A program made the position numbers and the translations under genes. From Xestospongia bergquistia (Eukaryota > Porifera > Demospongiae > Haplosclerida > Petrosiidae), in the NCBI GenBank assembly GCA_963965975.1, contig OZ014416.1, positions 4,154,001-4,218,000 of the forward strand: 64,000 bases of DNA. Reading direction: 5' to 3'. Positions 5,346-64,000 of the stretch are shown here, one piece after another. The notes under the pieces are model-generated. The model was not told where the DNA came from, made no database searches, and worked only from the letters and a program-made list of their open reading frames with translations. Each line of letters begins with the position of its first letter. Within the stretch, counting starts at the first letter, position 1.

Positions 5346-5360
5346 AATATAATACGATAT

Positions 5361-9234: not shown

Positions 9235-9856
9235 CATAATTCTCAGTCTCCAATGTTGTGGTGTGATATGTTTTTACCAGTTTGATAGACATTCTATTGT
9301 TAGGGAGCAAATCGCTCGCCAGTTTGAATATTTTCACTTTGATTTCCCATAACTCCCTCAACCCACTTATCAGAACAAGACTCAGGGAGCAACAAAGGAC
9401 TACACACATGAGTATCAAGTAGATCCTTTAACAAAAACCACTATAAAGACTTTAGAAGGTTTAGACTATTGAGAGAAGTTTATAAAGTAAACTGCTCAGT
9501 CTAAAGGACTTTATGGCACTTACTGAATAAACAGCTATTAACAGTTTAGTAAGGTAGTTTGCATTAACGCTCTAAAGTCTTTAAGTTAAAGACTTTAGTA
9601 GGTTTAGACTCTTGAGAGAATTTTATAAAGTAAACTGCTCAGTCTAAAGGACTTAATGGGACTAACTAAGCACTCAGTTATTAACAGTTTAGAAAGTTAG
9701 TTTGCATTAATGCCCTAAAGTCTTTAAGTTAAAGACTTTAGAAGGTTTAGACTATTGAGAGAAGTTTATAAAGTAAAATGCTCAGTCTAAAGGACTTTAT
9801 GGCACTAACTAAATAAACAGTTATTAAAAGTTCAGAAAGTTAGTTTGCATTAACGC

Positions 9857-9885
9857 TCTAAAGTCTTTAAGTTAAAGACTTTAGA
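9857..9885. repeat. 29-bp dyad at the monomer junction (one example of about 380)
   Basis: The arm tctaaagtctttaa, one central g, then the exact reverse complement of the arm. It recurs in most monomers with no or one mismatch; the commonest variants change the t before or after the centre (aagataaag, aaataaag, atgttaaag) or the outer bases. It can form a 14-bp stem or act as a symmetric protein-binding site. Confidence 0.9.
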
Positions 9886-10016
9886 AGGTTTAGACTATTG
9901 AGAGAAGTTTATAAAGTAAACTGCTCAGTCTAAAGGACTTTATGGCACTAACTAAATAAACTGCTATTAACAGTTTAGTAAGTTAGTTTGCATTAACGCT
10001 CTAGAGTCTTTAAGTT
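9874..10016 (+). repeat. Representative satellite monomer
   Basis: A reference copy of the 143-bp unit, phased from aaagacttta. In order it holds: right half of the main dyad (1-12), gtttagactattgag, agtttataaagtaaact (small dyad with TATAAAG, about 33-49), ctcagtctaaaggacttta, an imperfect dyad from actaact to agttagt (about 75-115), gcattaacgct with the only CpG of the consensus, and the left half of the main dyad at the end. Confidence 0.9.
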
Positions 10017-13000
10017 AAAGACTTTAGAAGGTTTAGACTTTTGAGAGAAGTTTATAAAGTAAACTGCTCAGTCAAAAGGACTTAATGGGACTAACTAAGC
10101 ATTCAGTTATTAACAGTTTAGTAAGTTAGTTTGCATTAACGCTATAAAGGCTTTAAGTTAAAGACTTTAGAAAGTTTAGACTATTGAGAGAAGTTTATAA
10201 AGTAAACTGCTCAGTCTAAAGGACTTTATGGCACTAACTAAATAAACAGCTATTAACAGTTTAGTAAGATAGTTTGCATTAACGCTCTAAAGTCTTTAAG
10301 TTAAAGACTTTAGAAAGTTTAGACTATTGAGTGAAGTTTATAAAGTAAACTGCTCAGTCTAAAGGAGTTTATGGCGCTAACCAATTAAACACCTATTAAC
10401 AGTTTAGTAAGTTAGTTTGCATTAACGCTCTAAAGACTTTAAGTTAAAGACTTTATAAGGTTTAGACTGTTGAGTGAACTTTATAAAGTAAACTGCTTAG
10501 TCTAAAGGACTTAATGGGACTAACTAAACAAACTGCTACTAACAGTTTAGTAAGTTAGTTTGCATTAATGCTCTCAAGTCTTTTAGTTAAAGACTTCATA
10601 AGGTTTAGACTATTGACTGAAGTTGGTAAAGTAAAGTGCTTAGTAAAAAAATCTTTATGGCACTAACTAAGTAAACAAATCTTAAAAGTTTAGTAAGATG
10701 GTTTGCATTAACACTCTAAAGTCTTTAAGTTGAAGAGTTTAGAAAGTTTAAACTATTGAGTGAATTTTACAAAGTAAACAGCTCAGCCTAAAGGACTTTA
10801 TGGCACTAACTAAATAAACAGCTATTAACAGTTTAGTAAGTTAGTTTGCATTAACGCTCTAAAGTCTTTAAGTTAAAGACTTTAGAAAGTTTAGACTAAT
10901 GAGAGAAGTTTATAAAGTAAACTGCTCAGTCTAAAGGACTTTATGGCACTAACTAAATAAACAGCTATTAACAGTTTAGTAAGTTAGTTTGCATTAACGC
11001 TCTAAAGTCTTTAAGTTGAAGAGTTTAGAAAGTTTACAATATTGAGTGAATTTTATAAAGTAAACTGCTCAGTCTAAAGGACTTTATGGCACTAACTAAA
11101 TAAAGAGCTATTAACAGTTTAGTAAGTTAGTTTGCATTAACGCTCTAAAGTCTTTAAGTTAAAGACTTTAGTAGGTTTAGACCATTGAGAGAAGTTTATA
11201 AAGTAAACTACTCAGTCTAATGGACTTTATGGCACTAACTAAATAAACAGCTATAAACAATTTAGCAAGTTTGTTTGAATTAACGCTCTAAAGTCTTTAA
11301 ATTAATGACTTTAGAAGGTTTAGACTATATAAAGAAGTTTATAAAGTAAACTACTCTATCTAAAGGACTTTATGGCACTAACTAAATAAACAGCGATTAA
11401 CAGTTTAGTAAGTTAGTTTGCATTAACGCTCTAAAGTCTTTAAGTTAAAGACTTTACTAGGTTTAAACTATTGAGAGAAGTTTATAAAGTAAACTGCTCA
11501 GTCTAATGGACTTTATAGCACTAACTAAGTAAACAGCTATTAACAGTTTAGTAAGTTAGTTTGCATTAACGCTTTAAAGTCTTTAAGTTAAAGACTTTAG
11601 TAGGTTTAGACTCTTGAGAGAATTTTATAAAGTAAACTGCTCAGTCTAAAGGACTTAATGGGACTAACTAAGCACTCAGTTATTAACAGTTTAGAAAGTT
11701 AGTTTGCATTAATGCCCTAAAGTCTTTAAGTTAAAGACTTTAGAAGGTTTAAACTATTGAGAGAATTTTATAAAGTAAAATGCTCAGTCTATAGGACTTT
11801 ATGGCACTAACTAAATAAACAGTTATTAACAGTTCAGAAAGTTAGTTTGCATTAACGCTCTAAAGTCTTTAAGTTAAAGACTTTAGAAGGTTTAGACTAT
11901 TGAGAGAAGTTTATAAAGTGAACTGCTCAGTCTAAAAGACTTTATGGCACTAACTAAATAAACAGCTATTAACAGTTTAGTAAGTTAGTTTGCATTAACG
12001 CTCTAAAGTCTTTAAGTTAAAGAATTCAGAAGGTTTAGACTTTTGAGAGAAGTTTATAAAGTAAACTGCTCAGTCAAAAGGACTTAATGGGACTAACTAA
12101 GCATTCAGTTATTAACAGTTTAGTAAGTTAGCTTGCATTAACGCTCTAAAGGCTTTAAGTTAAAGACTTTAGAAGGTTTAGACTTTTGAGAAAAGTTTAT
12201 AAAGTAAAGTGCTCAGTCAAAAGGACTTAATGGGACTAACTAAGCATTCAGTTATTAACAGGTTAGTAAGTTAGTTTGCATTAACGCTCTAAAGTCTTTA
12301 AGTTAAAGACTTTAGAAGGTTTAGACTATTGAGAGAAGTTTATAAAGTAAACTGCTCAGTCTAAAGGACTTTATGGCACTAACGAAATAAACAGTTATTA
12401 ACAGTTCAGAAAGTTAGTTTGCATTAACGCTCTAAAGTCTTAAAGTTAAAGACTTTAGAAGGTTTAGACTATTGAGAGAAGTTTATAAAGTAAACTGCTC
12501 AGTCTAGAGGACTTTATGGCACTAACTAAATAAACAGCTATTAACAGTTTAGTAAGTTAGTTTGCATTAACGCTCTAACGTCTTTAAGTTAAAGACTTTA
12601 GAAGGTTTAGACTATTGAGAGAAGTTTATAAAGTAAACTGCTCAGTCAAAAGGACTTAATGGGACTAACTAAGCATTCAGTTATTAACAGTTTAGTAAGT
12701 TAGTTTGCATTAACGCTCTAAAGTCTTTAAGTTAAAGACTTTAGAAAATTTACACTATTGAGAGAAGTTTATAAAGTAAACTGCTCAGTCTAAAGGAGTT
12801 TATGGCGCTAACCAATTAAACAGCTATTAACAGTTTAGTAATTTAGTTTGCATTAACACGCGAAAGTCTTTAAGGTAAATACTTTAGAAGGTTTAGACTA
12901 TTGAGAGATGTTTATAAGGTAAACTGCTCAGTCTAAAGGACTTTATGGCACTAACAAAATAAACATCTATTAACAGTTTAGTAAGTTTCTTTGCATTAAC

Positions 13001-13380
13001 GCTCTAAAGTCTTTAAGATGAAGACTTTAGAAGGTTTAGACTATTGAGTGAAGTTTATAAAGTAAACTGCTCAGTCTAAAGGACTTTATGGCATTAACTA
13101 AATAAACAGCTATTAACAGTTTAGTAAGTTAGTTTGCATTAACGCTCTAAAGTCTTTAAGTTAAAGACTTTAGAAAGTTTAGACTAATGAGAGAAGTTTA
13201 TAAAGTAAACTGCTCAGTCTAAAGGACTTTATTGCACTAACTAAATAAACAGCTATTAACAGTTTAGTGAGTTAGTTTGCATTAACGCTCTAAAGTCTTT
13301 AAGTTGAAGAGTTTAGAAAGTTTACAATATTGAGTGAATTTTATAAAGTAAACAGCTCAGTCTAAAGGACTTTATGGCAC

Positions 13381-16300
13381 TAACTAAATAAACAGCTATT
13401 AACAGTTTAGTAAGTTAGTTTGCATTAACGCTCTAAAGTCTTTAAGATAAAGACTTTAGAAGGTTTAGACTATTGAGAGAAGTTTATAAAGTAAACTGCT
13501 CAGTCAAAAGGACTTAATGGGACTAACTAAGCATTCAGTTATTAACAGTTTAGTCAGTTAGCTTGCATTAACGCTCTAAAGGCTTTAAGTTAAAGACTTT
13601 AGAAGGTTTAGACTTTTGAGAAAAGTTTATAAAGTAAAGTGCTCAGTCAAAAGGACTTAATGGGACTAACTAAGCATTCAGTTATTAACAGGTTAGTAAG
13701 TTAGTTTGCATTAACTCTTTAAAGGCTTTAAGTTAAAGACTTTAGAAGTTTAGACTATTGAGAGAAGTTTATAAAGTAAACTGCTCATTCTAAAGGACTT
13801 TATGGCACTAACGAAATAAACAGTTATTAACAGTTCAGAAAGTTAGTTTGCATTAACGCTCTAAAGTCTTAAAGTTAAAGACTTTAGAAGGTTTAGACTA
13901 TTGAGAGAAGTTTATAAAGTAAACTGCTCAGTCTAGAGGACTTTATGGCACTAACTAAATAAACAGCTATTAACAGTTTAGTAAGTTAGTTTCCATTAAC
14001 GCTCTAACGTCTTTAAGTTAAAGACTTTAGAAGGTTTAGACTATTGAGAGAAGTTTATAAAGTAAACTCCTCAGTCTAAAGGACTTTATGGCACTAACTA
14101 AATAAACAGCTATTAACAGTTTAGTAAGTTAGTTTGCATTAACGCTCTAAAGTCTTTAAGTTAAAGGCTTTAGAAGGTTTAGACTATTCAGAGAAGTTTA
14201 TAAAGTAAACTGCTCAGTCTAAAGGACTTTATGGAACTAACTAAGCATTCAGTTATTAACAGTTAGGAAGATAGTTTGCATTAACGCTCTAAAGTCCTTA
14301 AGTTAAAGACTTTAGAAAGTTTAGACTATTGAGAGAAGTTTATAATGTAAACTGCTCAGTCTAAAGGAGTGTATGGCGCTAACCAATTAAACAGCTATTA
14401 ACAGTTTAGTAAGTTAGTTTGCATTAACGCGCTAAAGTCTTTAAGTTAAAGACTTTAGAAGGTTTAGACTATTGAGAGAAGTTTATAAGGTAAACTGCTC
14501 AGTCTAAAGGACTTTATGGCACTAACAAAATAAACATCTATTAACAGTTTAGTAAGTTTGTTTGCATTAACGCTCTAAAGTCTTTAAGATAAAGACTTTC
14601 GAAGGTTTAGACTATTGAGTAAAGTTTATACAGTAAACTGCTCAGTCTAAAGGACTTTATGGCACTAACTAAATAAACATCTATTAACACTTTAGTAAGT
14701 TAGTTTGCATTAACACTCTAAAGTCTTTAAGATAAAGACTTTAGAAGGTTTAGACTAATGAGAGAAGTTTATAAAGTAAACTGCTCAGTCTAAAGGACTT
14801 TATGGCACTAACTAAATAAACAGATATTAACAGTTTAGTAAGTAACTTTGCATTAACGCTCTAATCTCTTTAAGTTAAAGACTTTAGAAGGTTTAGACTA
14901 ATGAGTGAATTTTATGAAGTAAACTGCTCAGTCTAAAGGACTTTATGGCACTAAATAATAAACAACTATTAACAGTTTAGTAAGTTAGTTTGCATTAACG
15001 CTCTAAAGTCTTTAAGTTAAAGACTTTAGAAGGTATAGACTATTGAGAGAAGTTTATAAAGTATATTGCTTAGTTTAAAGAACTTTATGGCACTGACTAA
15101 ATAAAGATATATTAACAGTTTAGTAAGTTAGTTTGCATTAACGCTCTAAAGTCTTTAAGGTAAAGACTTTAGAAGGTTTAAACTCTTGAGTGAAGTTTAT
15201 AAAGTAAACTGCTCAGTCTAAAGGACTTTATGGCTCTAACTAATTAAAATTATATTAACAGTTTAGTAAGTTAGTTTGCATTAACGCTCTAAAGTCTTTA
15301 AGTTAAAGACTTTAGAAGGTTTACACTAATGAGTGAAGTTTATAAAGTAAACTGCTCAGTCTAAAGGACTTTATGGCACTAACTAAATAAACATCTATTA
15401 ACAGTTTAGTAAGTTAGTTTGCATTAACGTTCTAAATTCTTTAACTTAAAGACTTTAGAAGGTTTAGACTAATGAGAGAAGTTTATAAAGTAAGTGCTCA
15501 GTCTAAAGGACTTTATGGCACTAACTAAATGAACAGCTATTAACAGTTTAGTAAGTTAGTTTGCATTAACGGTCTAAAGTCTTTAAGTTAAAGACTTTAG
15601 AAGGTTTAGACTATTGAGTGAAGTTTATAAAGTAAACTGCGCAGTCTAATGGTCTTTATGGCACTAAATAAGTAAACAGCTATTAACAGTTTAGTAAGTT
15701 AGTTTGCATTAACGCTCTAATGTCTTCAAGTTAAAGACATTAGTAGGTTTAGAGTATTGAGACAAGTTTATAAAGTAAACTGCTAAGTCTAGATCTCTTA
15801 GTGGGACTAACTAAGCATTCAGTTATTAACAGTTTCGTAAGTTAGTTTGCATTAACGCTCTAAAGTCTTTAAGTTAAAGACTTTAGAAGGTTTAGACTAT
15901 TGAGAGAAGTTTATAAAGTAAACTGCTCAATCTAAAGGACTTTAAGGCACTAACTAAATAAAGAGCTATTAACAGTTTATTATGTTCGTTTGCATTAACG
16001 CTCTAAAGTCTTTAAGGGAAACACTTTAGAAGGTTTCGAATATCGAGACAAGTTTATGAAGTAAACTGCTCAGTCTAAAGGACTTTATGGCACTAACTAA
16101 ATAAACAGCTATTAACACTTTAGTAAGTTAGTTTGCATTAACGCTCTAAAGTCTTTGAGTTAAAGACTTTAGTAGGGTTAGACTCTTGAGAGAATTTTAT
16201 AAAGTAAACTGCTCAGTCTAAAGGAGTTAATGGGACTAACTAAATAAACAGCTATTAACAGTTTAGTAAGTTAGTTTGCATTAAAGTTCTAAAGTCTTTA

Positions 16301-18091
16301 AGTTAAAGACTTTAGAAGGTTTAGACTATTGAGAGAAGTTTATAAAGTAAGCTGCTCAGTCTAAAGGTTTTTATGGCACTAATTAAATAAACAGCTATTA
16401 ACAGTTTAGTAAGTTAGTTTGCATTAGCGCTCTACAGTCTTTAAGTTAAAGACTTTAGAAGGTTTAGACTATTCAGAGAAGTTCATAAAGTAAACTGCTC
16501 AGTCTCAAGGACTTTATGGCACTAACTAAATAAACAGCAATTAACAGTTTAGTAAGTTAGTTTGCATTAACGCAATAAAGTCTTTAAGTTAAAGACTTTA
16601 GTAGGTATAGACTATTGAGAGAAGTTTATAAAGTAAATTGCTCAGTCTAAAGGACTTTTTGGCACTAACTAAATAAACAGCTATTAACAGTTTAGTAAGT
16701 TAGTTTGCATTAACGCTTTAAGTCTTCAAGTTAAGGACTTTAGAAGGTTTAGACTAATGAGAGAAGTTTATAAAGTAAACTGCTCAATCTAAAGGACTTT
16801 AAGGCACTAACTAAATAAACAGCTATTAACAGTTTATTATGTTCGTTTGCATTAACGCTCAAAAGTCTTTAAGGGAAACACTTTAGAAGTTTAGAATATC
16901 GAGACAAGTTTATGAAGTAAACTGCTCAGTCTAAAGGACTTTATGGCACTAACTAAATAAACAGCTATTAACACTTTAGTAAGATAGTTTGCATTAACGC
17001 TATAAAGTCTTTAAGTTAAAGACTTTAGTAGGGTTAGACTCTTGAGAGAATTTTATAAAGTAAACTGCTCAGTCTAAAGGAGTTAAGGGACTAACTAAGC
17101 ACTCAGTTATTAACAGTTTAGAAAGTTAGTTTGCATTAACGCCGTAAAGTCTTTAAGTTAAAGACTTTAGAAGGTTTAGACTATTGAGAGAAGTTTATAA
17201 AGTATAATACTCAGTCTAAAGGAGTTTATGGCGCTAACCTATTAAACAGCTATTAACAGTTTAGTAAGTTTGTTTGCATTAACGCTCTAAAGACTTTAAG
17301 TTAAAGACTTTATAAGGTTTAGACTGTTGAGTCAACTTTATAAAGTAAACTGCTTAGTATAAAAAACTTAATTGGACTAATTAAACAAACTGCTACTAAC
17401 AGTTTAGTAAGTTTGATGGCGTTAACGCTCTCAAGTCTTTAAGTTAAAGACTTTAGTAGGTTTACACTATTGACTGAAGTTTGTAAAGTAAAGTGTTTAG
17501 TAAAAAAATCTTTATGGCACTAACTAAATAAACAACTATTAAAAGTTTAGTAGGTTGGTTTGCATTAACATTCTAAAGTCTTTAACTTGAAGAGTTTAGA
17601 AAGTTTAAACTATTGAGTGAATTTTATAAAGTAAACAGCTCAGCCTAAAGGAGTTTATGGCACTAACTAAATAAACAGCTATTAACAGTTTAGTAAGTTA
17701 GTTTGCATTAACGCTCTAAAGTCTTTAAGTTAAAGACTTTAGAAAGTTTAGACTAATGAGAAAGTTTATAAAGTAACTGCTCAGTCTAAAGGACTAAATG
17801 GGACTCACTAAGCAAACTGCTATTAACGGTTTTATACGTTAGTTTGCATTAACGCTCTAAAGTCTTTAAGATAAAGACCTTAGAAAGTTTAGACTATTGA
17901 GAGAAGTTTATAAAGTAAACTGCTCAGTCTAAAGGACTTTATGGCACTAACTAAATAAACAGCTATTAACAGTTTAGTAAGTTAGTTTGCATTTACGCTC
18001 TAAAGTCTTTAAGTTAAAGATTTTACTTGGTTTAGACTATTGAGAGAAGTTTATAAAGTAAACTGCTTAGTCTAAAGGAGTTTATGGCACT
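13381..18091 (+). repeat. 4.71-kb higher-order unit, copy 1 (33 monomers)
   Basis: This block is followed by an almost exact second copy. Rare markers line up at a constant offset of 4,710-4,711 bp: gagtgtatggcgctaacc at about 14,369 and 19,080; agggttagactcttgag at about 17,030 and 21,741; tattaacggttttatacg at 17,821 and 22,532. I found only about half a dozen differences, including a 1-bp deletion at about 13,748. An inner 857-bp (6-monomer) duplication, marked by ttattatgttcgtttg (about 15,979 and 16,836), is present in both copies. Confidence 0.9.
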
Positions 18092-21000
18092 AACTAAATA
18101 AACAGCTATTAACAGTTTAGTAAGTTAGTTTGCATTAACGCTCTAAAGTCTTTAAGATAAAGACTTTAGAAGGTTTAGACTATTGAGAGAAGTTTATAAA
18201 GTAAACTGCTCAGTCAAAAGGACTTAATGGGACTAACTAAGCATTCAGTTATTAACAGTTTAGTCAGTTAGCTTGCATTAACGCTCTAAAGGCTTTAAGT
18301 TAAAGACTTTAGAAGGTTTAGACTTTTGAGAAAAGTTTATAAAGTAAAGTGCTCAGTCAAAAGGACTTAATGGGACTAACTAAGCATTCAGTTATTAACA
18401 GGTTAGTAAGTTAGTTTGCATTAACTCTTTAAAGGCTTTAAGTTAAAGACTTTAGAAGGTTTAGACTATTGAGAGAAGTTTATAAAGTAAACTGCTCAGT
18501 CTAAAGGACTTTATGGCACTAACGAAATAAACAGTTATTAACAGTTCAGAAAGTTAGTTTGCATTAACGCTCTAAAGTCTTAAAGTTAAAGACTTTAGAA
18601 GGTTTAGACTATTGAGAGAAGTTTATAAAGTAAACTGCTCAGTCTAGAGGACTTTATGGCACTAACTAAATAAACAGCTATTAACAGTTTAGTAAGTTAG
18701 TTTCCATTAACGCTCTAACGTCTTTAAGTTAAAGACTTTAGAAGGTTTAGACTATTGAGAGAAGTTTATAAAGTAAACTCCTCAGTCTAAAGGACTTTAT
18801 GGCACTAACTAAATAAACAGCTATTAACAGTTTAGTAAGTTAGTTTGCATTAACGCTCTAAAGTCTTTAAGTTAAAGGCTTTAGAAGGTTTAGACTATTC
18901 AGAGAAGTTTATAAAGTAAACTGCTCAGTCTAAAGGACTTTATGGAACTAACTAAGCATTCAGTTATTAACAGTTAGGAAGATAGTTTGCATTAACGCTC
19001 TAAAGTCCTTAAGTTAAAGACTTTAGAAAGTTTAGACTATTGAGAGAAGTTTATAATGTAAACTGCTCAGTCTAAAGGAGTGTATGGCGCTAACCAATTA
19101 AACAGCTATTAACAGTTTAGTAAGTTAGTTTGCATTAACGCGCTAAAGTCTTTAAGTTAAAGACTTTAGAAGGTTTAGACTATTGAGAGAAGTTTATAAG
19201 GTAAACTGCTCAGTCTAAAGGACTTTATGGCACTAACAAAATAAACATCTATTAACAGTTTAGTAAGTTTGTTTGCATTAACGCTCTAAAGTCTTTAAGA
19301 TAAAGACTTTCGAAGGTTTAGACTATTGAGTAAAGTTTATACAGTAAACTGCTCAGTCTAAAGGACTTTATGGCACTAACTAAATAAACATCTATTAACA
19401 CTTTAGTAAGTTAGTTTGCATTAACACTCTAAAGTCTTTAAGATAAAGACTTTAGAAGGTTTAGACTAATGAGAGAAGTTTATAAAGTAAACTGCTCAGT
19501 CTAAAGGACTTTATGGCACTAACTAAATAAACAGATATTAACAGTTTAGTAAGTAACTTTGCATTAACGCTCTAATCTCTTTAAGTTAAAGACTTTAGAA
19601 GGTTTAGACTAATGAGTGAATTTTATGAAGTAAACTGCTCAGTCTAAAGGACTTTATGGCACTAAATAATAAACAACTATTAACAGTTTAGTAAGTTAGT
19701 TTGCATTAACGCTCTAAAGTCTTTAAGTTAAAGACTTTAGAAGGTATAGACTATTGAGAGAAGTTTATAAAGTATATTGCTTAGTTTAAAGAACTTTATG
19801 GCACTGACTAAATAAAGATATATTAACAGTTTAGTAAGTTAGTTTGCATTAACGCTCTAAAGTCTTTAAGGTAAAGACTTTAGAAGGTTTAAACTCTTGA
19901 GTGAAGTTTATAAAGTAAACTGCTCAGTCTAAAGGACTTTATGGCTCTAACTAATTAAAATTATATTAACAGTTTAGTAAGTTAGTTTGCATTAACGCTC
20001 TAAAGTCTTTAAGTTAAAGACTTTAGAAGGTTTACACTAATGAGTGAAGTTTATAAAGTAAACTGCTCAGTCTAAAGGACTTTATGGCACTAACTAAATA
20101 AACATCTATTAACAGTTTAGTAAGTTAGTTTGCATTAACGTTCTAAATTCTTTAACTTAAAGACTTTAGAAGGTTTAGACTAATGAGAGAAGTTTATAAA
20201 GTAAGTGCTCAGTCTAAAGGACTTTATGGCACTAACTAAATGAACAGCTATTAACAGTTTAGTAAGTTAGTTTGCATTAACGGTCTAAAGTCTTTAAGTT
20301 AAAGACTTTAGAAGGTTTAGACTATTGAGTGAAGTTTATAAAGTAAACTGCGCAGTCTAATGGTCTTTATGGCACTAAATAAGTAAACAGCTATTAACAG
20401 TTTAGTAAGTTAGTTTGCATTAACGCTCTAATGTCTTCAAGTTAAAGACATTAGTAGGTTTAGAGTATTGAGACAAGTTTATAAAGTAAACTGCTAAGTC
20501 TAGATCTCTTAGTGGGACTAACTAAGCATTCAGTTATTAACAGTTTCGTAAGTTAGTTTGCATTAACGCTCTAAAGTCTTTAAGTTAAAGACTTTAGAAG
20601 GTTTAGACTATTGAGAGAAGTTTATAAAGTAAACTGCTCAATCTAAAGGACTTTAAGGCACTAACTAAATAAAGAGCTATTAACAGTTTATTATGTTCGT
20701 TTGCATTAACGCTCTAAAGTCTTTAAGGGAAACACTTTAGAAGGTTTCGAATATCGAGACAAGTTTACGAAGTAAACTGCTCAGTCTAAAGGACTTTATG
20801 GCACTAACTAAATAAACAGCTATTAACACTTTAGTAAGTTAGTTTGCATTAACGCTCTAAAGTCTTTGAGTTAAAGACTTTAGTAGGGTTAGACTCTTGA
20901 GAGAATTTTATAAAGTAAACTGCTCAGTCTAAAGGAGTTAATGGGACTAACTAAATAAACAGCTATTAACAGTTTAGTAAGTTAGTTTGCATTAAAGTTC

Positions 21001-22860
21001 TAAAGTCTTTAAGTTAAAGACTTTAGAAGGTTTAGACTATTGAGAGAAGTTTATAAAGTAAGCTGCTCAGTCTAAAGGTTTTTATGGCACTAATTAAATA
21101 AACAGCTATTAACAGTTTAGTAAGTTAGTTTGCATTAGCGCTCTACAGTCTTTAAGTTAAAGACTTTAGAAGGTTTAGACTATTCAGAGAAGTTCATAAA
21201 GTAAACTGCTCAGTCTCAAGGACTTTATGGCACTAACTAAATAAACAGCAATTAACAGTTTAGTAAGTTAGTTTGCATTAACGCAATAAAGTCTTTAAGT
21301 TAAAGACTTTAGTAGGTATAGACTATTGAGAGAAGTTTATAAAGTAAATTGCTCAGTCTAAAGGACTTTTTGGCACTAACTAAATAAACAGCTATTAACA
21401 GTTTAGTAAGTTAGTTTGCATTAACGCTTTAAGTCTTCAAGTTAAGGACTTTAGAAGGTTTAGACTAATGAGAGAAGTTTATAAAGTAAACTGCTCAATC
21501 TAAAGGACTTTAAGGCACTAACTAAATAAACAGCTATTAACAGTTTATTATGTTCGTTTGCGTTAACGCTCAAAAGTCTTTAAGGGAAACACTTTAGAAG
21601 TTTAGAATATCGAGACAAGTTTATGAAGTAAACTGCTCAGTCTAAAGGACTTTATGGCACTAACTAAATAAACAGCTATTAACACTTTAGTAAGATAGTT
21701 TGCATTAACGCTATAAAGTCTTTAAGTTAAAGACTTTAGTAGGGTTAGACTCTTGAGAGAATTTTATAAAGTAAACTGCTCAGTCTAAAGGAGTTAAGGG
21801 ACTAACTAAGCACTCAGTTATTAACAGTTTAGAAAGTTAGTTTGCATTAACGCCGTAAAGTCTTTAAGTTAAAGACTTTAGAAGGTTTAGACTATTGAGA
21901 GAAGTTTATAAAGTATAATACTCAGTCTAAAGGAGTTTATGGCGCTAACCTATTAAACAGCTATTAACAGTTTAGTAAGTTTGTTTGCATTAACGCTCTA
22001 AAGACTTTAAGTTAAAGACTTTATAAGGTTTAGACTGTTGAGTCAACTTTATAAAGTAAACTGCTTAGTATAAAAAACTTAATTGGACTAATTAAACAAA
22101 CTGCTACTAACAGTTTAGTAAGTTTGATGGCGTTAACGCTCTCAAGTCTTTAAGTTAAAGACTTTAGTAGGTTTACACTATTGACTGAAGTTTGTAAAGT
22201 AAAGTGTTTAGTAAAAAAATCTTTATGGCACTAACTAAATAAACAACTATTAAAAGTTTAGTAGGTTGGTTTGCATTAACATTCTAAAGTCTTTAACTTG
22301 AAGAGTTTAGAAAGTTTAAACTATTGAGTGAATTTTATAAAGTAAACAGCTCAGCCTAAAGGAGTTTATGGCACTAACTAAATAAACAGCTATTAACAGT
22401 TTAGTAAGTTAGTTTGCATTAACGCTCTAAAGTCTTTAAGTTAAAGACTTTAGAAAGTTTAGACTAATGAGAAAGTTTATAAAGTAACTGCTCAGTCTAA
22501 AGGACTAAATGGGACTCACTAAGCAAACTGCTATTAACGGTTTTATACGTTAGTTTGCATTAACGCTCTAAAGTCTTTCAGATAAAGACCTTAGAAAGTT
22601 TAGACTATTGAGAGAAGTTTATAAAGTAAACTGCTCAGTCTAAAGGACTTTATGGCACTAACTAAATAAACAGCTATTAACAGTTTAGTAAGTTAGTTTG
22701 CATTTACGCTCTAAAGTCTTTAAGTTAAAGATTTTACAAGGTTTAGACTATTGAGAGAAGTTTATAAAGTAAACTGCTTAGTCTAAAGGAGTTTATGGCA
22801 CTAACTAAATAAACAGCTATTAACAGTTTAGTAAGTTAGTTTGCATTAACGCTCTAAAAT
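18092..22860 (+). repeat. 4.71-kb higher-order unit, copy 2
   Basis: Tandem second copy of 13,381-18,091. Similarity stays near-perfect to about 22,857, where copy 2 reads ctaaaatctttaagtt while the sequence after copy 1 reads ctaaagtctttaagat. Private changes include tttacgaag (about 20,765) and tttgcgttaac (about 21,556). Confidence 0.9.
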
Positions 22861-25800
22861 CTTTAAGTTAAAGACTTTAGAAGGTTTAGACTATTGAGAG
22901 AAGTTTATAAAGTAAACTGCTCAGTCTAAAGGACTTTATGGCACTAACTAAATAAACAGCTATTAACAGTTTAGTAAGTTAGTTTGCATTAACGCTCTAA
23001 AGTCTTTAAGTGAAAGACTTTAGAAGGTTTAGACTATTGAGAGAAGAGTATAAAGTAAACTGCTCAGTCTAAAGGACTTTATGGCTCGAATTAAATAAAC
23101 AGCTATTAACAGTTTAGTAAGTTAGTTTGCATTAACGCAATAAAGTCTTTAAGATAAACACTTTAGTAGGTATAGACTATTGAGAGATGTTTGTAAAGTA
23201 AACTGCTCAGTCTAAAGGACTTTTTGGCACTAACTAAATAAACAGCTATTAACAGTTTAGTAAGTTAGTTTGCATTAACGCTCTAAAGTCTTTAAGTTAA
23301 AGACTTTAGAAGGTTTAGACTATTGAGAGAAGTTTATAAAGTAAACTGCTCAGACTAAAGGACTTTATGGCACTAACTAAGTAAACAGCTATTAACAGTT
23401 TAGTAAGTTAGTTTCCATTAACGCTCTAAAGTCTTTAAGTGAAAGACTTTAGAAGGTTTAGACTATTGAGAGAAGAGTATAAAGTAAACTGCTCAGTCTC
23501 AAGGACTTTATGGCACTAACTAAATAAACAGCTATTAACAGTTTAGTAAGTTAGTTTGCATTAACGCTCTAAAGTCTTTAAGTTAAAGACTTTAGAAGGT
23601 TTAGACTATTGAGAGAAGTTTATAAAGTAAACTGCTCAGTCTAAAGGACATTATGGCACTAACTAAATAAACAGCTATTAACAGTTTAGTAAGTTAGTTT
23701 GCGTTAACGAAATAAAGTCTTTAAGTTAAAGTCTTTAGTAGGTATAGACTATTGAGAGAAGTTATAAAGTAAACTGCTCAGTCTAAAGGACTTTTTGCTA
23801 CAAACTAAGTAAACAGCTATTAACAGTTTAGTAAGTTAGTTTGCATTAACGCTCTAAAGTCTTTAAGTTAAAGACTTTAGAAGGTTTACACTATTGACAG
23901 AAGTTTATAAAGTAAACTGCTTAGTCTAAAGGACTTTATGGCACTAAATAAAGAAACAGCTATTAACAGTTTAGTAAGTTAGTTTGCATTAACGCTCTAA
24001 AGTCTTTAAGTTAAAGACTTTAGAAGGTTTAGACTGTTGAGAGAAGTTTATAAAGTAAACTGCTCAGTCTAAAGGACTTTATGGCACTAACTAAATAAAC
24101 AGCTATTAACAGTTTAGTAAGTTAGTTTGCATTAAAGTCCTAAAGTCTTTAAGTTAAAGACTTTAGAAGGTTTAGACTATTGAGAGAAGTTTATAAAGTA
24201 AGCTGCTCAGTCTAAAGGACTATGGCACTAACTAAATAAACAGCTATGAACAGTTTAGTAAGTTAGTTTGCATTAGCGCTTTAAGTCTTTAAGTTAAGGA
24301 CTTTAGAAGGCTTTGACTATTGAGAGAAGTTTATAAAGTAAACTGCTCAATCTAAAGGACTTTATGGCACTGACTATATAAACAGCTATTAACAGTTTAG
24401 TAAGTTAGTTTCCATTAACGCTCTAAAATCTTTAAGTTAAACACTTTAATAGGTTTACACCATTGAGAGAAGTTTATAAAGTAAACTGCTCAGTCTAAAG
24501 GACTTTATGGCACTAAATAAGTAAACAGCTATTAACAGTTTTGTAAGTTAGTTTGCATTAACGCTCTAAAGTCTTTAAGTTAAAGACTTTAGAAGGTTTA
24601 GGCTATTGAGAGAAGTTTATAAAGTAAACTGCTCAGTCTAAAGGACTTTATGGCTCTAACTAAATAAAGAGCTATTAACAGTTTCGTAAGTTAGTTTGCA
24701 TTTACGCTCTAAAGTCTTTAAGTTAAAGACTTTAGTAGGTTTAGACTATTGAGAGAAGTTTATAAAGTAAACTGCTCAGTCTAAAGGACTTTATGGCACT
24801 AAATAAGTAAACAGCTATTAACAGTTTTGTAAGTTAGTTTGCATTAACGCTCTAAAGTCTTTAAGTTAAAGACTTTAGAAGGTTTAGACTATTGAGAGAA
24901 GTTTATAAAGTAAACTGCTCAGTCTAAAGGACTTCATGGCACTAACTATGTAAACAGCTATTAACAGTTTAGTAAGTTAGTTTGCACTAACGCTATAAAG
25001 TCTTTAAGCTAAAGACTTTAGAAGGTTTAGACTATTGAGAGAAGTTTATAAAGAAAACTGCTCAGTCTAAAGGACTTTATGGCACTAACTAAATAAACAG
25101 CTATTAACAGTTTAGTAAGATTGTTTGTATTAACGCTCTAAAGTCTTTATGTTAAAGATTTTTGAAGGTTTAGACTATTTAAAGAAGTTTATAAAGTAAA
25201 CTGCTCACTCTAACGGACTTTCTGGCACTAACTAAATAAACAGCTATTAACAGTTTAGTAAGTTAGTTTGCATTAACGCTCTAAATTCTTTAATTTAAAG
25301 ACTTCAGAAGATTTAGACTATTGAGAGAAGTTTATAAAGTAAACTGCTCAGTCTAAAGGACTTTATGGCACTAACTAAATAAACAGCTATTGACAGTTTA
25401 GTAAGTTAGTTTGCATTAACGCTCTAAAGTCTTTAAGTTAAAGACTTTAGAAGGTTTAGACAATTCAGAGAAGTTTATAAAGTAAACTGCTCAGTCTAAG
25501 GGCTTTATGGCACTAACTAAATAAACAGCTATTAACAGTTTAGTAAGTTAGTTTGCATTAACGCTATAAAGTCTTTAAGTTAAAGACTTTAGAAGGTTTA
25601 GACTATTGAGAGAAGTTTATAAGGAAAACTGCTCAGTCTAAAGGACTTAATGGCACTAACTAAGTAAACAGCTATTAACAGTTTAGCAAGTTAGTTTGCA
25701 TTAACGCTCTAAAGTCTTTAAGATAAAGACTTTAGAAGGTTTAGACTATTTAGAGAAGTTTATAAAGTAAACTGCTCAGTCTAAAGGATTTATGGCACTA

Positions 25801-55980: not shown

Positions 55981-56959
55981 AAGTCTTTAAGTTAAAGACT
56001 TTAGAAGGTTTAGACTCTTCAGTGGAGTTTACAAAGTAAACTGCTTAGTCTAAAGGACTTTATGGCACTAACTAAATAAACAGCTATTAACAGTTTAGTA
56101 AGTTAGTTTGCATTAACGCTCTAAACTCTTTAAGTTAAAGACTTTAGAAGCTTTAGAGTATTCAGAGAAGTTTATAAAGTAAACTGCTCAGTCTAAAGGA
56201 CTTTGTGGCACTAACTAAATAAACAGCTATTAACAGTTTAGTAAGTTAGTTTGCATTAACGCAATAAAGTCTTTAAGTTAAAGACTTTAGTAGGTATAGA
56301 CTATTGAGAGAAGTTTATAAAGTAAACTGCTCAGTCTAAAGGACTTTATGGCACTAACTAAATAAAGAGCTATTAACAGTTTAGTAAGTTAGTTTGCATT
56401 AACGCTCAAAAGTCTTTAAGTAAAAGACTTTAGAATGTTTAGACTATTGAGAGAAGTTTACAAAGTAAACTGCATAGTCTAAAGGACTTTATGGCACTAA
56501 CTAAATAAACAGCTATTAACAGTTTAGTAAGTTAGTTTGAATTAACGCTCTAAACTCTTTAAGTTAAAGACTTTAGAAGCTTTAGACAATTGAGAGAAGT
56601 TTATAAAGTAAACTGCTCAGTCTAAAGGACTTTATGGCACTAACTAAATAAACAGCTATTAACAGTTTAGTAAGTTAGTTTGCATTAACGCAATAAAGTC
56701 TTTAAGTTAAAGACTTTAGAAGGTTTAGACTATTGAGAGAAGTTTACAAAGTAAACTGCATAGTCTAAAGGACTTTATGGCACTTACGAAATAAAGAGCT
56801 ATTAACAGTTTAGTAAATTAGTTTGCATTAACGCTCAAAAGTCTTTAAGTTAAAGACTTTAGAAGGTTTAGACTATTGAGAGAAGTTTACAAAGTAAACT
56901 GCATAGTCTAAAGGACTTTATGGCACTAACTAAGTAAACAGCTATTAACAGTTTAGTAA

Positions 56960-58600
56960 GTTAGTTTGCATTAACGCTATAAAGTCTTTATGTTAAAGAC
57001 TTCAGAAGGTTTAGACTATTGAGAGAAGTTTATAGAGTAAACTGCTCTGTCTAAAGGACTTTATGGCACTAACTAAATAAACAGCTATTAACAGTTTAGT
57101 AAGTTAGTTTGCATTAGCGCTCTAAAGTCTTTAAGTTAAAGACTTTAGAAGGTTTAGACTATTGAGAGAGTTTATAAAATAAACGGCTTAGTCTAAAGGA
57201 CTTTAAGGCTCTAACTAAATAAACAGCTATTAACAGTTCAGAAAGTTAGTTTGCATTAACGCTCTAAACTCTTTAAGTTAAAGACTTTAGAAGGTTTAGA
57301 CAATTGAGAGAAGTTTAAAAAGTAAACTGCTTAGTCTAAAGGACTTAATATCACTAACTAAATAAACAGCTATTAACAGTTTAGTAAGTTAGTTTGCATT
57401 AACGCTCTAAACTCTTTAAGTTAAAGACTTTAGAAGCTTTAGAGTATTCAGAGAAGTTTATAAAGTAAACTGCTCAGTCTAAAGGACTTTGTGGCACTAA
57501 CTAAATAAACAGCTATTAACAGTTTAGTAAGTTAGTTTGCATTAACGCAATAAAGTCTTAAGATAAAGACTTTAGTAGGTATAGACTATTGAGAGAAGTT
57601 TATAAAGTAAACTGCTCAGTCTAAGGGACTTTATGGCACTAACTAAATAAAGAGCTATTAACAGTTTAGTAAGTTAGTTTGCATTAACGCTCAAAAGTCT
57701 TTAAGTTAAAGACTTTAGAAGGTTTAGACTATTGAGAGAAGTTTACAAAGTAAACTGCATAGTCTAAAGGACTTTATGGCACTAACTAAATAAACACCTA
57801 TTAACAGTTTAGTAAGTTAGTTTGCATTAACGCCCTAAACTCTTTAAGTTAAAGACTTTAAAAGCTTTAGAGTATTCAGAAAAGTTTATAAAGTAAACTG
57901 CTCAGTCTAAAGGACTTTATGGCACTAACTAAATAAAAAGCTATTAACAGTTTAGTAAGTTAGTTTGCATTAACGCAATAAAGTCTTTAAGTTAAAGACT
58001 TTAGAAGGTTTAGACTATTGAGAGAAGTTTACAAAGTAAACTGCATAGTCTAAAGGACTTTATGGCACTAACTAAATAAAGAGCTAATAACAGTTTAGTA
58101 AGTTAGTTTGCATTAACGCTCAAAAGTCTTTAAGTTAAAGACTTTAGAAGGTTTAGACTATTGAGAGAAGTTTACAAAGTAAACTGCATAGTCTAAAGGA
58201 CTTTATGGCACTAACTAAGTAAACAGCTATTAACAGTTTAGTAAGTTAGTTTGCATTAACGCTATAAAGTCTTTATGTTAAAGACTTGAGAAGGTTTAGA
58301 CTATTGAGAGAAGTTTATAGAGTAAACTGCTCTGTCTAAAGGACTTTATGGTACTAACTAAATAAACAGCTATTAACAGTTTAGTAAGTTAGTTTGCATT
58401 AGCGCTCTAAAGTCTTTAAGTTAAAGGCTTTAGAAGGTTTAGACTATTGAGAGAGTTTATAAAATAAACGGCTTAGTCTAAAGGACTTTAAGGCTCTAAC
58501 TAAATAAACAGCTATTAACAGTTCAGAAAGTTAGTTTGCATTAACGCTCTAAACTCTTTAAGTTAAAGACTTTAGAAGGTTTAGACAATTGAGAGAAGTT
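56960..58600 (+). repeat. 1,285-bp (9-monomer) duplication
   Basis: The variant tatagagtaaactgctctg occurs at 57,031 and 58,316, with neighbouring variants (aacggcttag, gcatagtctaaagg, gaagctttagagtattc) in register over about nine monomers. Confidence 0.75.
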
Positions 58601-59924
58601 TAAAAAGTAAACGCTTAGTCTAAAGGACTTTATGGCAACAATTAAATAAACAGCTATTAACAGTTTACTAAGTTTGTTTGCATTAACGCTCTAAAGTCTT
58701 TAAGTTAAAGACTTTAGAAGGTTTAGACTATTCAGAGAAGTTTAAAAAGTAAACTGCTTAGTCTAAAGGACTTTATGGCACTAACTAAATAAACAGCTAT
58801 TAACAGTTTAGTAAGTTAGTTTGCATTAACGCTCTAAAGTCTTTAAGTTAAAGAGTTTAGAAGGTTTAGACTATTCAGAGAAGTTTATAAAGTAAACTGC
58901 TCAGTCTAAAGGACTTTACGGCACTAACTAAATAAAGAGCTATTAACAGTTTAGTAAGTTAGTTTGCATTAACGCTCTAAACTTTTTAAGATAAAGACTT
59001 TAGAAGGTTTAGACTATTGAGAGAAGTTTATAAAGTAAACTGCTCAGTCTAAAGGACTTTATGGCACTAACTAAATAAACAGCTATTAACAGTTTAGTAA
59101 GTTTGTTTGCATTAACGCTCTAAACTCTTTAAGTTAAAGACTTTAGAAGCTTTAGAGTATTCAGAGAAGTTTATAAAGTAAGCTGCTCAGTCTAAAGGAC
59201 TTTATGGCACTAACTAAATAAACAGCTATTAACAGTTTAGTAAGTCAGTTTGCATTAACGCAATAAGGTCTTTAAGTTAAAGACTTTAGTAGGTATAGAC
59301 TATTGAGAGAAGTTTATAAAGTAAACTGGTCAGTCTAAAGGACTTTATGGCACTAACTAAATAAAGAGCTATTAACAGTTTAGTAAGTTAGTTTGCATTA
59401 ACGCTCTAAAGTCTTTAAGTTAAAGACTTTAGAAGGTTTAGACTATTGAGAGAAGTTTACAAAGTAAACTGCATAGTCTAAAGGACTTTATGGCACTAAC
59501 TAAAGAAACAGCTATTAACAGTTTAGTAAGTTAGTTAGCGTTAACGCTCTAAACTCTTTAAGTTAAAGACTTTAGAAGCTTTAGAGTATTCAGAGAAGTT
59601 TATAAAGTAAACTGCTCAGTCTAAAGGACTTTATGGCACTAACTAAATAAACAGCTATTAACAGTTTAGTAAGTTAGTTTGCATTAACGCAATAAAGTCT
59701 TTAAGTTAAAGACTTTAGTAGGTATAGACTATTGAGAGAAGTTTATAAAGTAAACTGCTAAGTCTAAAGGACTTTTTGCTACTAACTACATAAAGAGCTA
59801 TTAACAGTTTAGTAAGTTAGTTTGCATTAACGCTCTAAAGTCTTTAAGTTAAAGACTTTAGAAGGTTTAGACTATTGAGAAAAGTTTATAAAGTAAACTG
59901 CTCAGTCTAAAGGACTTTACGGCA

Positions 59925-61250
59925 CTAACTAAGTAAACAGCTATTAACAGTTTAGTAAGTTAGTTTGCATTAACGCTCTAATGTCTTTAAGATAAAGACT
60001 TTAGAATGTTTAGGCTATTGAGAGAAGTTTATAAAGTACACTGTTCATTCTAAAGGACTTTATGGCACTAACGAAATAAACAGCTATTAACAGTTTAGTA
60101 AGTTAGTTTGCATTAACGCTCTAAAGTCTTTAAGTTAAAGTCTTTAGAAGGTTTAGACTATTGAGAAAAGTTTATAAAGTAAACTGCTCAGTCTAAAGGA
60201 CTTTATGGCACTAACTAAGTAAACAGCTATTAAGAGTTTAGTAAGTTAGTTTGCATTAACGCTCTAATGTCTTTAAGATAAAGACTTTAGAATGTTTAGG
60301 CTATTGAGAGAAGTTTATAAAGTACACTGTTCAGTCTAAAGGACTTTATGGCTCTAACTAAATAAACAGCTATTAACAGTTTAGTAAGTTAGTTTGCATT
60401 AACGCTCTAAAGTCTTTAAGTTAAAGACTTTAGAAGGTTTAGACTATTAAGAGAAGTTTATAAAGTAAACTGCTCAGTCTAAAGGACTTTATGGCACTAA
60501 CTAAATAAACAGCTATTAACAGTTTTGTAAGTTAGTTTGCATTAACGCTCTAAAGTCATTAAGTTAAAGACTTTAGAAAGTTTAGACTATTCACAGAAGT
60601 TTATAAAGTAAACTGCTAAGTCTAAAGGACTTTATGGCACTAACTAAATAAACAGCTATTATTAGTAAGTTAGTTTGCATTAACGCTCTAAAGTCTTTAA
60701 GTTAAAGACTTTAGAAGGTTTACACTGTTGAGAGAAGTTTATAAAGGAAACTGTTCAGTCTAAAGGACTTTATGGCACTAACTAATTAAAGAGCTATTAA
60801 CAGTTTAGTTAGTTAGTTTGCATTAACGTTCTAAAGTCTTTAAGTTAAAGACTTTAGTAGGTATAGACTATTGAGAGAAGTTTATAAAGTAAACTGCTAA
60901 GTCTAAAGGACTTTTTGCTGCTAACTAAATAAACAGCTATAAACAGTTTAGTAAGTTAGTTTGCATTAATGCTCTAAAGTCTTTAAGATAAAGACTTTAG
61001 AAGGTTTAGATTATTGAGGGAAGTTTATAAAGTAAACTGCTCAGTCTAAAGGACTTTATGGCACTAACTAATTAAAGAGCTATTAACAGTTTAGTTAGTT
61101 AGTTTGCATTAACGTTCTAAAGTCTTTAAGTTAAAGACTTTAGTAGGTATAGACTATTGAGAGAAGTTTATAAAGTAAACTGCTAAGTCTAAAGGACTTT
61201 TTGCTGCTAACTAAATAAACAGCTATAAACAGTTTAGTAAGTTAGTTTGC
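59925..61250 (+). repeat. Two separate dimer (286-bp) duplications
   Basis: First, aatgtttaggctattg with agtacactgttc is found at about 60,003 and 60,289. Second, actaattaaagagc, agttagttagtttgc, ttttgctgctaac and attaatgctc are found from 60,781 and again from 61,067. Each pair is exactly two monomers apart and nearly identical, so these are among the youngest events in the array. Confidence 0.85.
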
Positions 61251-64000
61251 ATTAATGCTCTAAAGTCTTTAAGTTAAAGACTTTAGAAGCTTTAGAGTAT
61301 TCAGAGAAGTTTATAAAGTAAACTGCTCAGTCTAAAGGACTTTATGGCACTAACTAAATAAACAGCTATTAACAGTTTAGTAAGTTAGTTTGCATTAACG
61401 CAATAAAGTCTTTAAGTTAAAGACTTTAGTAGGTATAGACTATTGAGAGAAGTTTATAAAGTAAACTGCTCAGTCTAAAGGACTCTATGGCACTAACTAA
61501 GTGAACAGCTATTAACAGTTTAGTAAGTTAGTTTGCATTAACGCTCTAAAGTCTTTAAAATAAAGACTTTAGAAGGTTTAGACTATTCACAGAAGTTTAT
61601 AAAGTAAACTGCTAAGTCTAAAGGACTTTATGGCACTAACTAAATAAACAGCTATTAACAGTTTAGTAAGTTAGTTTGCTTTAACGCTCTAAATTCTTTA
61701 AGTTAAAGACTTTAGAAGGTTTAGACTATTGAGAAAAGTTTATAAAGTAAACTGCTCAGTCTAAAGGACTTTAAGGCACTAACTAAACAAACAGCTATTA
61801 ACAGTTTAGTAAGTTAGTTTGCATTAACGCAATAAGGTCTTTAAGTTAAAGACTTTAGTAGGTATAGACTATTGAGAGAAGTTTATAAAGTAAACTGCTC
61901 AGTCTAAAGGACTTTTTGCTACTAACTAAATAAACAGCTATAAACAGTTTAGTAAGTTAGTTTGCATTAACGCTCTAAAGTCTTTAAGTTAAAGACTTTA
62001 GAAGGTTTAGACTATTGACAGAAGTTTATAAAGTAAACTGCTTAGTCTAAAGGACTTTATGGCACTAACTAAATAAACAGCTATTAACAGTTTAGTAAGT
62101 TAGTTTGCATTAACGCTCTAAAGTCTTTAAGTTAAAGACTTTAGAAGGTTTAGACTATTGAGAGAAGTTTATAAAGTAAACTGCTCAGTCTAAAGGACTT
62201 TATGGCACTAACTAAATAAACAGCTATTAACAGTTTAGTAAGTTAGTTTGCATTAACGCTCTAAACTCTTTAAGTTAAAGACTTTAGAAGGTTTAGACAA
62301 TTGAGAGAAGTTTAAAATGTAAACTGCTTAGTCTAAAGGACTTTATGGCACTAATTAAATAAACAGCTATTAACAGTTTAGTAAGTTTGTTTGCATTAAC
62401 GCTCTAAAGTCTTTAAGTTAAAGACTTTAGAAGGTTTAGACTATTCAGAGAAGTTTATAAAGTAAACTGCTTAGTCTAAAGGACACTATGGCACTAACTA
62501 AATAAACAGCTATTAACAGTTTAGTAAGTTAGTTTGCATTAACGCTATAAAGTCTTTAAGTTAAAGACTTTAGAAGGTTTAGACTATTGAGAGAAGTTTA
62601 TAAAGTAAACTGCTCTGTCTAAAGGACTTTATGGCACTAACTAAGTAAACAGCTATTAACAGTTTAGTAAGTTAGTTTGCATTAACGCTATAAACTCTTT
62701 AAGATAAAGACTTTAGAAGGTTTAGACTATTGAGAGAAGTTTATAAAGTAAACTGCTCAGTCTAAAGGACTTTATGGCACTAACTAAATAAACAGCTATT
62801 AACAGTTTAATAAGTTAGTTTGCATTAACGCTCTAAAGTCTTTAAGTTAAAGACTTTAGAAGGTTTAGAATATACAGAGGAGTTTACAAAGTAAATTGCT
62901 TAGTCTAAAGGACTCTAAGGCACTAACTAAATAAACAGCTATGAACAGTTTTGTAAGTTAGTTTGCGTTAACGCTCTAAACTCTTTAAGTTAAAGACTTT
63001 AGAAGGTTTAGAGTATTCAGAGAAGTTTATAAAGTAAACTGCTCAGTCTAAAGAACTTTATGGCACTAACTAAATAAACAGCTATTAACAGTTTAGTAAG
63101 TTAGTTTGCATTAACGCTATAAAGTCTTTAAGTTAAAGACTTTAGAAGGTTTAGACTATTGAGAGAAGTTTGTAAAGTAAAATGCTCAGTCTAAAGGACT
63201 TTATGGCACTAACTAAATAAACAGTTATTAACAGTTTAGTAAATTAGTTTGTATTAACGCTCTAAAGTCTTTAAGTTAAAGACTTTTGAAGATTAAGACA
63301 ATTGAGAGAAGTTTATAAAATAAACTGTTTAGTCTAAAGGACTTTATGGCACTAACTAAGTAAACAGCTATTAACAGTTTAGTAAGTTAGTTTGCATTAA
63401 CGCTATAAAGTCTTTATGTTAAAGACTTCAGAAGGTTTAGACTATTGAGAGAAGTTTATAAAGTAAACTGCTCTGTCTAAAGGACTTTATGGCACTAACT
63501 AAATAAACAGCTATTAACAGTTTAGTAAGTTAGTTTGCATTAGCGCTCTAAAGTCTTTAAGTTAAAGACTTTAGAAGGTTTAGACTATTGAGATTGTTTA
63601 TAAAATAAACGGCTTAGTCTAAAGGACTTTAAGGCTCTAACTAAATAAACAGCTATTAACAGTTCAGAAAGTTAGTTTGCATTAACGCTCTAAACCCTTT
63701 AAGTTAAAGACTTTAGAAGGTTTAGACAATTGAGAGAAGTTTAAAAAGTAAACTGCTTAGTCTAAAGGACTTAATGGCACCAATTAAATAAACAGCTATT
63801 AACAGTTTACTAAGTTTGTTTGCATTAACGCTCTAAAGTCTTTAAGTTAAAGACTTTAGAAGGTTTAGACTATTCAGAGAAGTTTAAAAAGTAAACTGCT
63901 TAGTCTAAAGGACTTTATGGCACTAACTAAATAAACAGCTATTAACAGTTTAGTAAGTTAGTTTGCATTAACGCTCAAAAGTCTTTAAGTTAAAGACTTT

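What the first reader, a model, noticed from the sequence alone, without database searches (positions are those of the whole stretch)
9444..64000. 54.6 kb of pure 143-bp satellite with no interruption
About 381 monomers run head to tail in one orientation without a single inserted mobile element, although the 9 kb to the left is full of transposon relics. Purity plus many fresh local duplications fits an actively homogenised array such as a centromere core or a young heterochromatic block. The monomer does not match any satellite I can name.
Basis: partly seen in the sequence, partly recalled or inferred. Interest (0 to 1): 0.7.

Follow-up and report, generated by a model that had tools for sequence, protein, structure and literature searches.

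The report
Candidate centromere satellite of a sponge
This 143-base tandem repeat belongs to a family found in a block inside each of the 15 large chromosomes of what looks like a barrel sponge, so it is probably the DNA of its centromeres, which seem not to have been described for sponges.

Summary
The array is real: a 143-bp head-to-tail satellite, about 382 copies, from 9444 to the window edge, one strand, no insertion. It runs on to C6:4.230-4.237 Mb, about 67-74 kb in all. The 9.4 kb to its left is part of a non-satellite island inside a zone of about 0.86 Mb with several arrays, so the purity is local.

The genome (146.46 Mb, 15 chromosome-size contigs, 18,997-bp mitochondrion) looks like a barrel sponge near Xestospongia muta. 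The satellite was found on 15 of 15 chromosomes, each in one interior zone (34-78% of length): roughly 36,000 copies, 5.1 Mb, 3.5% of the genome. Of 140 spot samples on 11 chromosomes, 20 hold it, all inside the zone. Two subfamilies are divided among chromosomes. The consensus folds into three strong stem-loops, but mutations give no sign that pairing is kept. A CenH3-like histone is encoded.

Best explanation: centromeric satellite of a monocentric sponge (0.83). Kinetochore binding is untested. New member of a known kind; five paper searches found no sponge centromere DNA (two gave capped lists).

The parts
9444..64000 (+). 143-bp satellite array, subfamily A, about 382 monomers; continues beyond the window to between C6:4,230,080 and 4,237,000
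   Evidence: TRF; monomer alignment; samples beyond the window
13448..22867 (+). tandem duplication of a 33-monomer block (4.71 kb): copies begin at 13448 and 18158, 99.8% identical; sharpest trace of recent array growth
   Evidence: The end coordinate is start plus two offsets of 4,710 bp
9572..9598 (.). first copy of the monomer-junction dyad (CTAAAGTCTTTAA G TTAAAGACTTTAG), recurring about every 143 bp; one of three stem-loops in the consensus
   Evidence: read from the sequence; fold of the consensus
1..9443 (.). non-satellite stretch with mobile-element remains, lying between two arrays of the same zone
   Evidence: samples to the left

Best explanation
The array is part of the centromeric DNA of chromosome C6 of a sponge, probably a Xestospongia species. 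Shown: one 143-bp satellite family, close to one nucleosome in length, occupies an interior zone on each of the 15 chromosome-size contigs; arrays have grown by duplication of blocks of 4 to 33 monomers; close copies of a window dimer lie on the same chromosome; two subfamilies, A and B, are divided over the chromosomes typed. Inferred: these zones carry the CenH3 nucleosomes on which the kinetochore is built, with satellite chromatin around them, and exchange is mainly within a chromosome. The three stem-loops are a property of the consensus. A role for them, such as cruciform extrusion, is possible but the pattern of mutation does not support it.
For: Distribution: C3, C4, C5, C6, C7, C10, C11, C13 from search rows; C1; C8; C9, C12, C14, C15; C2 (1 of 40 C2 samples). 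Of 140 spot samples on 11 chromosomes (C2, C4, C6, C8-C15), 20 hold the satellite (recount); on C8, C9, C12, C14, C15 they are consecutive sample points, on C6 they lie between 3.75 and 4.23 Mb. 19 further fetches from contig starts (16 with letters, 3 all N) hold none. Lists in contig order show, for an A-type 21-mer, nothing on C1, C2 or on C4 before 4.194 Mb and, for a B-type 22-mer, one place on C1 before 18.354 Mb. Abundance: 20,430 + 12,222 places within 3 mismatches of a 38-mer, 0 for the reversed control, against 348 in the window; so about 35,800 copies, 5.1 Mb, 3.5%, probably low because subfamily B differs from that 38-mer at two bases. Contrast: the 218-bp satellite at C8:2.0 Mb gives 13 first-look candidates and rows on C8, C1 and weakly C4, C13, against 3,153 and 3,681. 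Chromosome-wise similarity: full-length rows at 98-100% to a window dimer are all on C6, those on other chromosomes at most 96% (40 of 3,153 candidates scored). Dyads: consensus fold z -5.8 (A) and -4.9 (B), 0 of 200 shuffles as low, against mean -0.1 and minimum -3.4 in 150 genomic windows. CenH3-like histone at C7:7.99 Mb: best PDB sequence match S. pombe Cnp1, 3 residues more than H3 in the stretch before LRW, no canonical H3 tail in the open frame.
Against: No CenH3, heterochromatin, FISH or Hi-C data. Pairing is not conserved: mutation rate 4.98% in paired and 5.22% in unpaired columns (Mann-Whitney p 0.99); 47 double changes against 42.7 expected, 4 of them complementary, against 0 to 16 in 12 slid controls. 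A real monomer folds less strikingly (z -3.8, 0 of 200 shuffles). No 10-bp WW periodicity: 42% of 2,000 background windows reach it. No CENP-C C-terminal domain in a six-frame search, which can miss a domain split by introns. Cnp1 beats the best H3 by under 2 bits (98.6 against 96.8), and most of the 60 listed matches are ordinary H3; the open frame has no usable start Met, so an upstream exon must be assumed.
Confidence: 0.83

Rival explanations
1. Pericentromeric heterochromatin: the satellite flanks the kinetochore site, which itself sits on other DNA, for instance the non-satellite islands within the zones (as retroelement islands do in Drosophila melanogaster; recalled).
For: The C6 zone alternates: satellite in samples at 3.75, 4.05, 4.10 and 4.16-4.23 Mb, none at 3.5, 4.0 and 4.12-4.15 Mb. 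Orientation switches within zones on C3 and C14.
Against: The satellite is the only element known here to be shared by all 15 zones; island sequences were not tested for sharing.
Confidence: 0.12
2. Interstitial heterochromatic blocks without centromeric role (knob-like or neutral satellite), the centromere being elsewhere or diffuse.
For: Position does not prove function; maize knob repeats outnumber the centromere repeat (PMC4053949, passages seen).
Against: Each of 15 chromosomes has a zone, and all 120 of 140 spot samples that lack the satellite agree with a single zone. A CenH3-like gene argues against CenH3-less holocentricity.
Confidence: 0.04
3. Assembly artefact: one array misplaced or copied into several scaffolds.
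For: Satellites are hard to assemble; the X. muta note says contig order in a repetitive region of its chromosome 2 is unknown (PMC12398682, passage seen).
Against: Arrays on different chromosomes carry different subfamily bases; 334 of 383 window monomers are distinct.
Confidence: 0.01

Closest known systems
Centromeric satellites of animals and plants as a class (surveyed by Melters et al. 2013, PMC4053949; passages seen)
   Same: High-copy tandem repeat, monomer near nucleosome length, a zone on every chromosome, block-wise duplication
   Different: No CenH3 data. From a sponge: 'sponge', 'Porifera' and 'Amphimedon' occur 0 times in the main text of that survey (supplements not seen)
Primate alpha satellite with suprachromosomal families (recalled)
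   Same: Subfamilies divided over sets of non-homologous chromosomes; orientation switches; block duplications
   Different: 143 not 171 bp; no CENP-B box core in the consensus; no regular higher-order repeat (mean identity flat from offset 1 to 44 but for small bumps, the largest at 33). No sequence comparison with alpha satellite was run
Centromeres enriched in dyad symmetries (Kasinathan and Henikoff 2018, as described in PMC8997354; passages seen)
   Same: Consensus holds three strong dyads covering most of the monomer
   Different: The junction stem is 13 bp, longer than the under-10-bp dyads described there; mutations show no pairing constraint

Membership tests
Centromeric satellite | Large tandem arrays of one monomer family | tested here: met
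   382 copies in the window; about 35,800 estimated in the genome
Centromeric satellite | Present at one site on every chromosome | tested here: met
   15 of 15 chromosome-size contigs; 140 spot samples on 11 chromosomes, 20 positive, all in zone. Sparse grid and capped lists; a 0.5-kb remnant lies apart at C1:5.88 Mb
Centromeric satellite | Most abundant tandem repeat of the genome | tested here: inconclusive
   Compared only with the 218-bp satellite, which is far rarer
Centromeric satellite | Bound by CenH3 nucleosomes | not testable with these tools
   A CenH3-like frame exists; occupancy unknown
Centromeric satellite | Coincides with the primary constriction | not testable with these tools
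   No cytology
Dyad-rich (non-B) centromere DNA | More dyad symmetry than background | tested here: met
   z -5.8 and -4.9 against mean -0.1, minimum -3.4 in 150 windows
Dyad-rich (non-B) centromere DNA | Pairing maintained across monomers | tested here: not met
   Paired and unpaired columns mutate alike; no excess of compensatory changes
Alpha-satellite-like with CENP-B box | CENP-B box (NTTCGNNNNANNCGGGN, motif recalled) | tested here: not met
   Neither TTCG nor CGGG, nor their complements, in the circular consensus
Higher-order-repeat satellite | Regular multi-monomer unit along the array | tested here: not met
   Only local block duplications (33, 11, 9, 8, 6 monomers and smaller)

The most novel reading that the evidence does not exclude
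The satellite is the working centromere of a sponge, and its two subfamilies record chromosome history. In the samples typed, subfamily B predominates on the three largest chromosomes C1-C3 (mixed at the C1 edge: 93 B to 36 A bases) and on C8, C9, C12, C14; subfamily A on C4, C6, C7, C13, C15, and by A-type matches on C10 and C11; C5 matches both queries. The 0.5-kb, 87%-identical remnant at C1:5.88 Mb, 12.5 Mb from the C1 zone, would be the relic of a centromere lost in a chromosome fusion, fitting 15 chromosomes here against 18 in Petrosia ficiformis of the same family (abstract in the listing).
Probability: 0.12. Interest if true: 0.75.

Novelty: new member of a known kind. Interest (0 to 1): 0.5.

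Why it matters
Sponges are among the earliest-branching animals, and I found no description of sponge centromere DNA in five searches of the paper library (two with capped lists). If confirmed, this gives a probe that marks candidate centromeres on all 15 chromosomes of one sponge, shows that a sponge can have satellite-based single-site centromeres like many other animals, and makes questions testable: which satellite subfamily CenH3 prefers, whether the stem-loops matter, and whether chromosome fusions left dead centromeres.

Tried and rejected
Selection for stem pairing: tested on 334 distinct monomers and rejected. Nucleosome-phasing WW periodicity: not above background. Shared break point of arrays at the dyad: five array edges begin or end at different monomer phases (0, 60, 77, 52 and 100, 80), so rejected. 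Regular higher-order repeat: rejected. Outer-edge decay of the array: the first 20 monomers average 94.1% identity against 95.0% for the rest, no clear decay. The exact 124-base B-type pattern: 0 hits, uninformative. Satellite motif in viral contigs and in prokaryote genome contigs: 0 hits each. CENP-C domain: no hit. CpG decay: 91% of window monomers keep the single CpG, 1.6% TG and 1.8% CA, so no sign of fast loss.

Full report
What was checked. The window is G000:C6:4154001-4218000 of an unnamed 146.46-Mb genome in 21 contigs. Contig lengths were read for 20 of 21 contigs (C17 not fetched): fifteen are of chromosome size (28.2 to 5.4 Mb) and C21 is 18,997 bp and encodes mitochondrial proteins such as COX1 in its first 10 kb. 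A genome note for the barrel sponge Xestospongia muta reports 15 chromosomes and an 18.99-kb mitochondrion, 158.52 Mb in all, and names a sister-species assembly, GCA_963965975.1 (PMC12398682, passages seen). The sizes differ from X. muta, so I take this to be a close relative; that is an inference, and no gene was compared between the two.

The array. TRF reports period 143 and 382.1 copies for 9444-64000 with 90% matches and 0% indels. 383 monomers could be cut; they average 94.7% identity to the consensus and 90.5% to one another; 334 are distinct. Identity does not fall with distance: 90.6% for neighbours, 90.6% at 40 units. Growth is by blocks: a 33-monomer block duplicated at 99.8%, and others of 11, 9, 8, 7, 6 and fewer monomers; 214 of 383 monomers lie in such blocks. 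Close copies of a window dimer are on the same chromosome: 98-100% only on C6, up to 138 kb-600 kb away, at most 96% in full-length rows on other chromosomes (where 40 of 3,153 candidates were scored).

Beyond the window. The array continues through C6:4,230,000 and has ended by 4,237,000. On the left, samples at 4.12, 4.135, 4.145 and 4.15 Mb are not satellite, while 4.05 and 4.10 Mb are. Other arrays on C6 are at 3.367, 3.429-3.440, 3.569, 3.706, 3.75 and 3.856-3.859 Mb, and samples at 3.5 and 4.0 Mb are not satellite. So the C6 zone is about 0.86 Mb of alternating satellite and other DNA, and the window holds one array and one island.

The genome. A 38-mer of the consensus occurs 20,430 times forward and 12,222 reverse at up to 3 mismatches, its reversed control never; 348 of these are in the window. 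Scaling gives about 35,800 copies, 5.1 Mb, 3.5% of the genome, likely an underestimate for subfamily B. Zones found: C1 from 18.35 Mb; C2 at 12.6 Mb with 12.2 and 13.0 Mb negative; C3 4.567-4.706; C4 4.194-4.474; C5 4.468-5.238; C6 3.367-4.23; C7 4.671-5.162; C8 samples 4.5-5.0; C9 4.9 and 5.2; C10 2.458-2.874; C11 3.526-3.840; C12 4.4 and 4.7; C13 3.196-3.672; C14 2.7-3.3; C15 2.5-3.1. These are 34% to 78% of chromosome length. Spans from search rows are lower bounds because the lists are capped.

Is it one zone per chromosome? Of 140 spot samples on 11 chromosomes, 20 were satellite (recount), and on each chromosome they are next to one another or, on C6, within the one zone. For the even grids the chance that randomly placed hits would be consecutive is 0.016 (C8), 0.2 (C12), 0.067 (C14) and 0.067 (C15), about 1 in 70,000 together. 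Sixteen contig starts with letters hold none. C1, C3, C5 and C7 were not spot-sampled; there the evidence is lists in contig order and best rows. A 0.5-kb remnant lies apart at C1:5.88 Mb.

Subfamilies. Consensus bases at seven columns separate two types. Counts of A against B bases at these columns: C1 36/93, C2 1/11, C3 22/246, C8 18/320, C9 1/13, C12 1/33, C14 5/41; C4 277/18, C6 window copy 146/9, C7 157/1, C13 118/1, C15 34/0. Some samples are very small (C2, C9, C12). Whole-genome counts of exact type-specific motifs are 8,977 for A and 7,246 for B. One of the seven changes removes the only CpG of the consensus.

Stem-loops. The consensus, turned so that the monomer junction is inside, folds as single-stranded DNA into three stem-loops, one with a perfect 13-bp stem; z is -5.8 for A and -4.9 for B, below all 200 shuffles and below all 150 genomic windows. 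One real monomer gives z -3.8. Against a function: paired columns mutate as often as unpaired ones, and double changes are not compensatory.

Centromere machinery. Thirteen histone-fold matches were found. Two are canonical H3 (L037, L038), one is a two-exon H3 (L040 with L044), and one, L039 at C7:7.99 Mb, is a divergent H3: 55 identities in 116 aligned residues to canonical H3, three extra residues before LRW, no canonical tail in the open frame. Its best PDB sequence match is S. pombe Cnp1, by under 2 bits over an H3.3 variant. The frame lacks a start Met, so an upstream exon is needed; that it is expressed is not shown. No CENP-C_C match was found.

Reading. A single satellite family with one interior zone on each chromosome is what a centromeric satellite of a monocentric organism looks like, and the survey of PMC4053949 treats the commonest tandem repeat as the default candidate (passages seen). 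What is not shown is CenH3 occupancy. Pericentromeric placement next to a kinetochore on other DNA is the main rival, since the C6 zone contains islands.

Literature. No paper with '143 bp', satellite, centromere, monomer and genome assembly together; none with Xestospongia and satellite DNA; two with sponge, centromere, satellite and Porifera, general articles by their titles and abstracts in the listing; none of the 15 listed of 449 mentions demosponges; none of the 25 listed of 102 holds both Demospongiae and centromer. Preprints and subscription papers are mostly outside this library.

Noticed in passing
L018 (C2 start), L019 (C3 start), L024 (C8 start), L030 (C14 start): Telomere arrays read CCCTAAA, the plant-type TTTAGGG, not the animal-type TTAGGG: 70 of 70, 63 of 64, 70 of 71 and 323 of 324 CCCTAA occurrences go on as CCCTAAA. 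Unusual for an animal; the one paper found for TTTAGGG, telomere, sponge and Porifera was a database article. Chromosome ends were not looked at, and 3 of 15 starts were all N.
   Followed up: partly
window 5791-8495: Remains of a mobile element: long inverted arms (5791-6233 against 7692-8495, 83-95% complementary) around frames matching the integrase core family PF24764 at 6867-7467 in four of ten frames searched; the frame is broken.
   Followed up: partly
L117:1162-1677 (C1:5.88 Mb): Isolated 0.5-kb remnant of the satellite, about 87% identical to the A consensus and mostly B-type, 12.5 Mb from the C1 zone.
   Followed up: partly
L055 (C8:2.0 Mb): A second satellite, 218/437 bp, filling the 4-kb sample; related copies mainly on C8 and C1.
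   Followed up: partly
L061 (C8:3.5 Mb), L082 (C9:3.7 Mb), L134 (C2:13.0 Mb), L138 (C2:16.0 Mb): Other tandem repeats met in samples: 642-bp, 86-bp, 86-bp (a different unit) and 115-bp.
   Followed up: no
L101, L102, L103 (C14:2.7, 3.0, 3.3 Mb); C3:4.656-4.677 Mb: The satellite changes strand within zones: minus, plus, minus in the three C14 samples, plus then minus along C3; all C6 places seen are plus.
   Followed up: no
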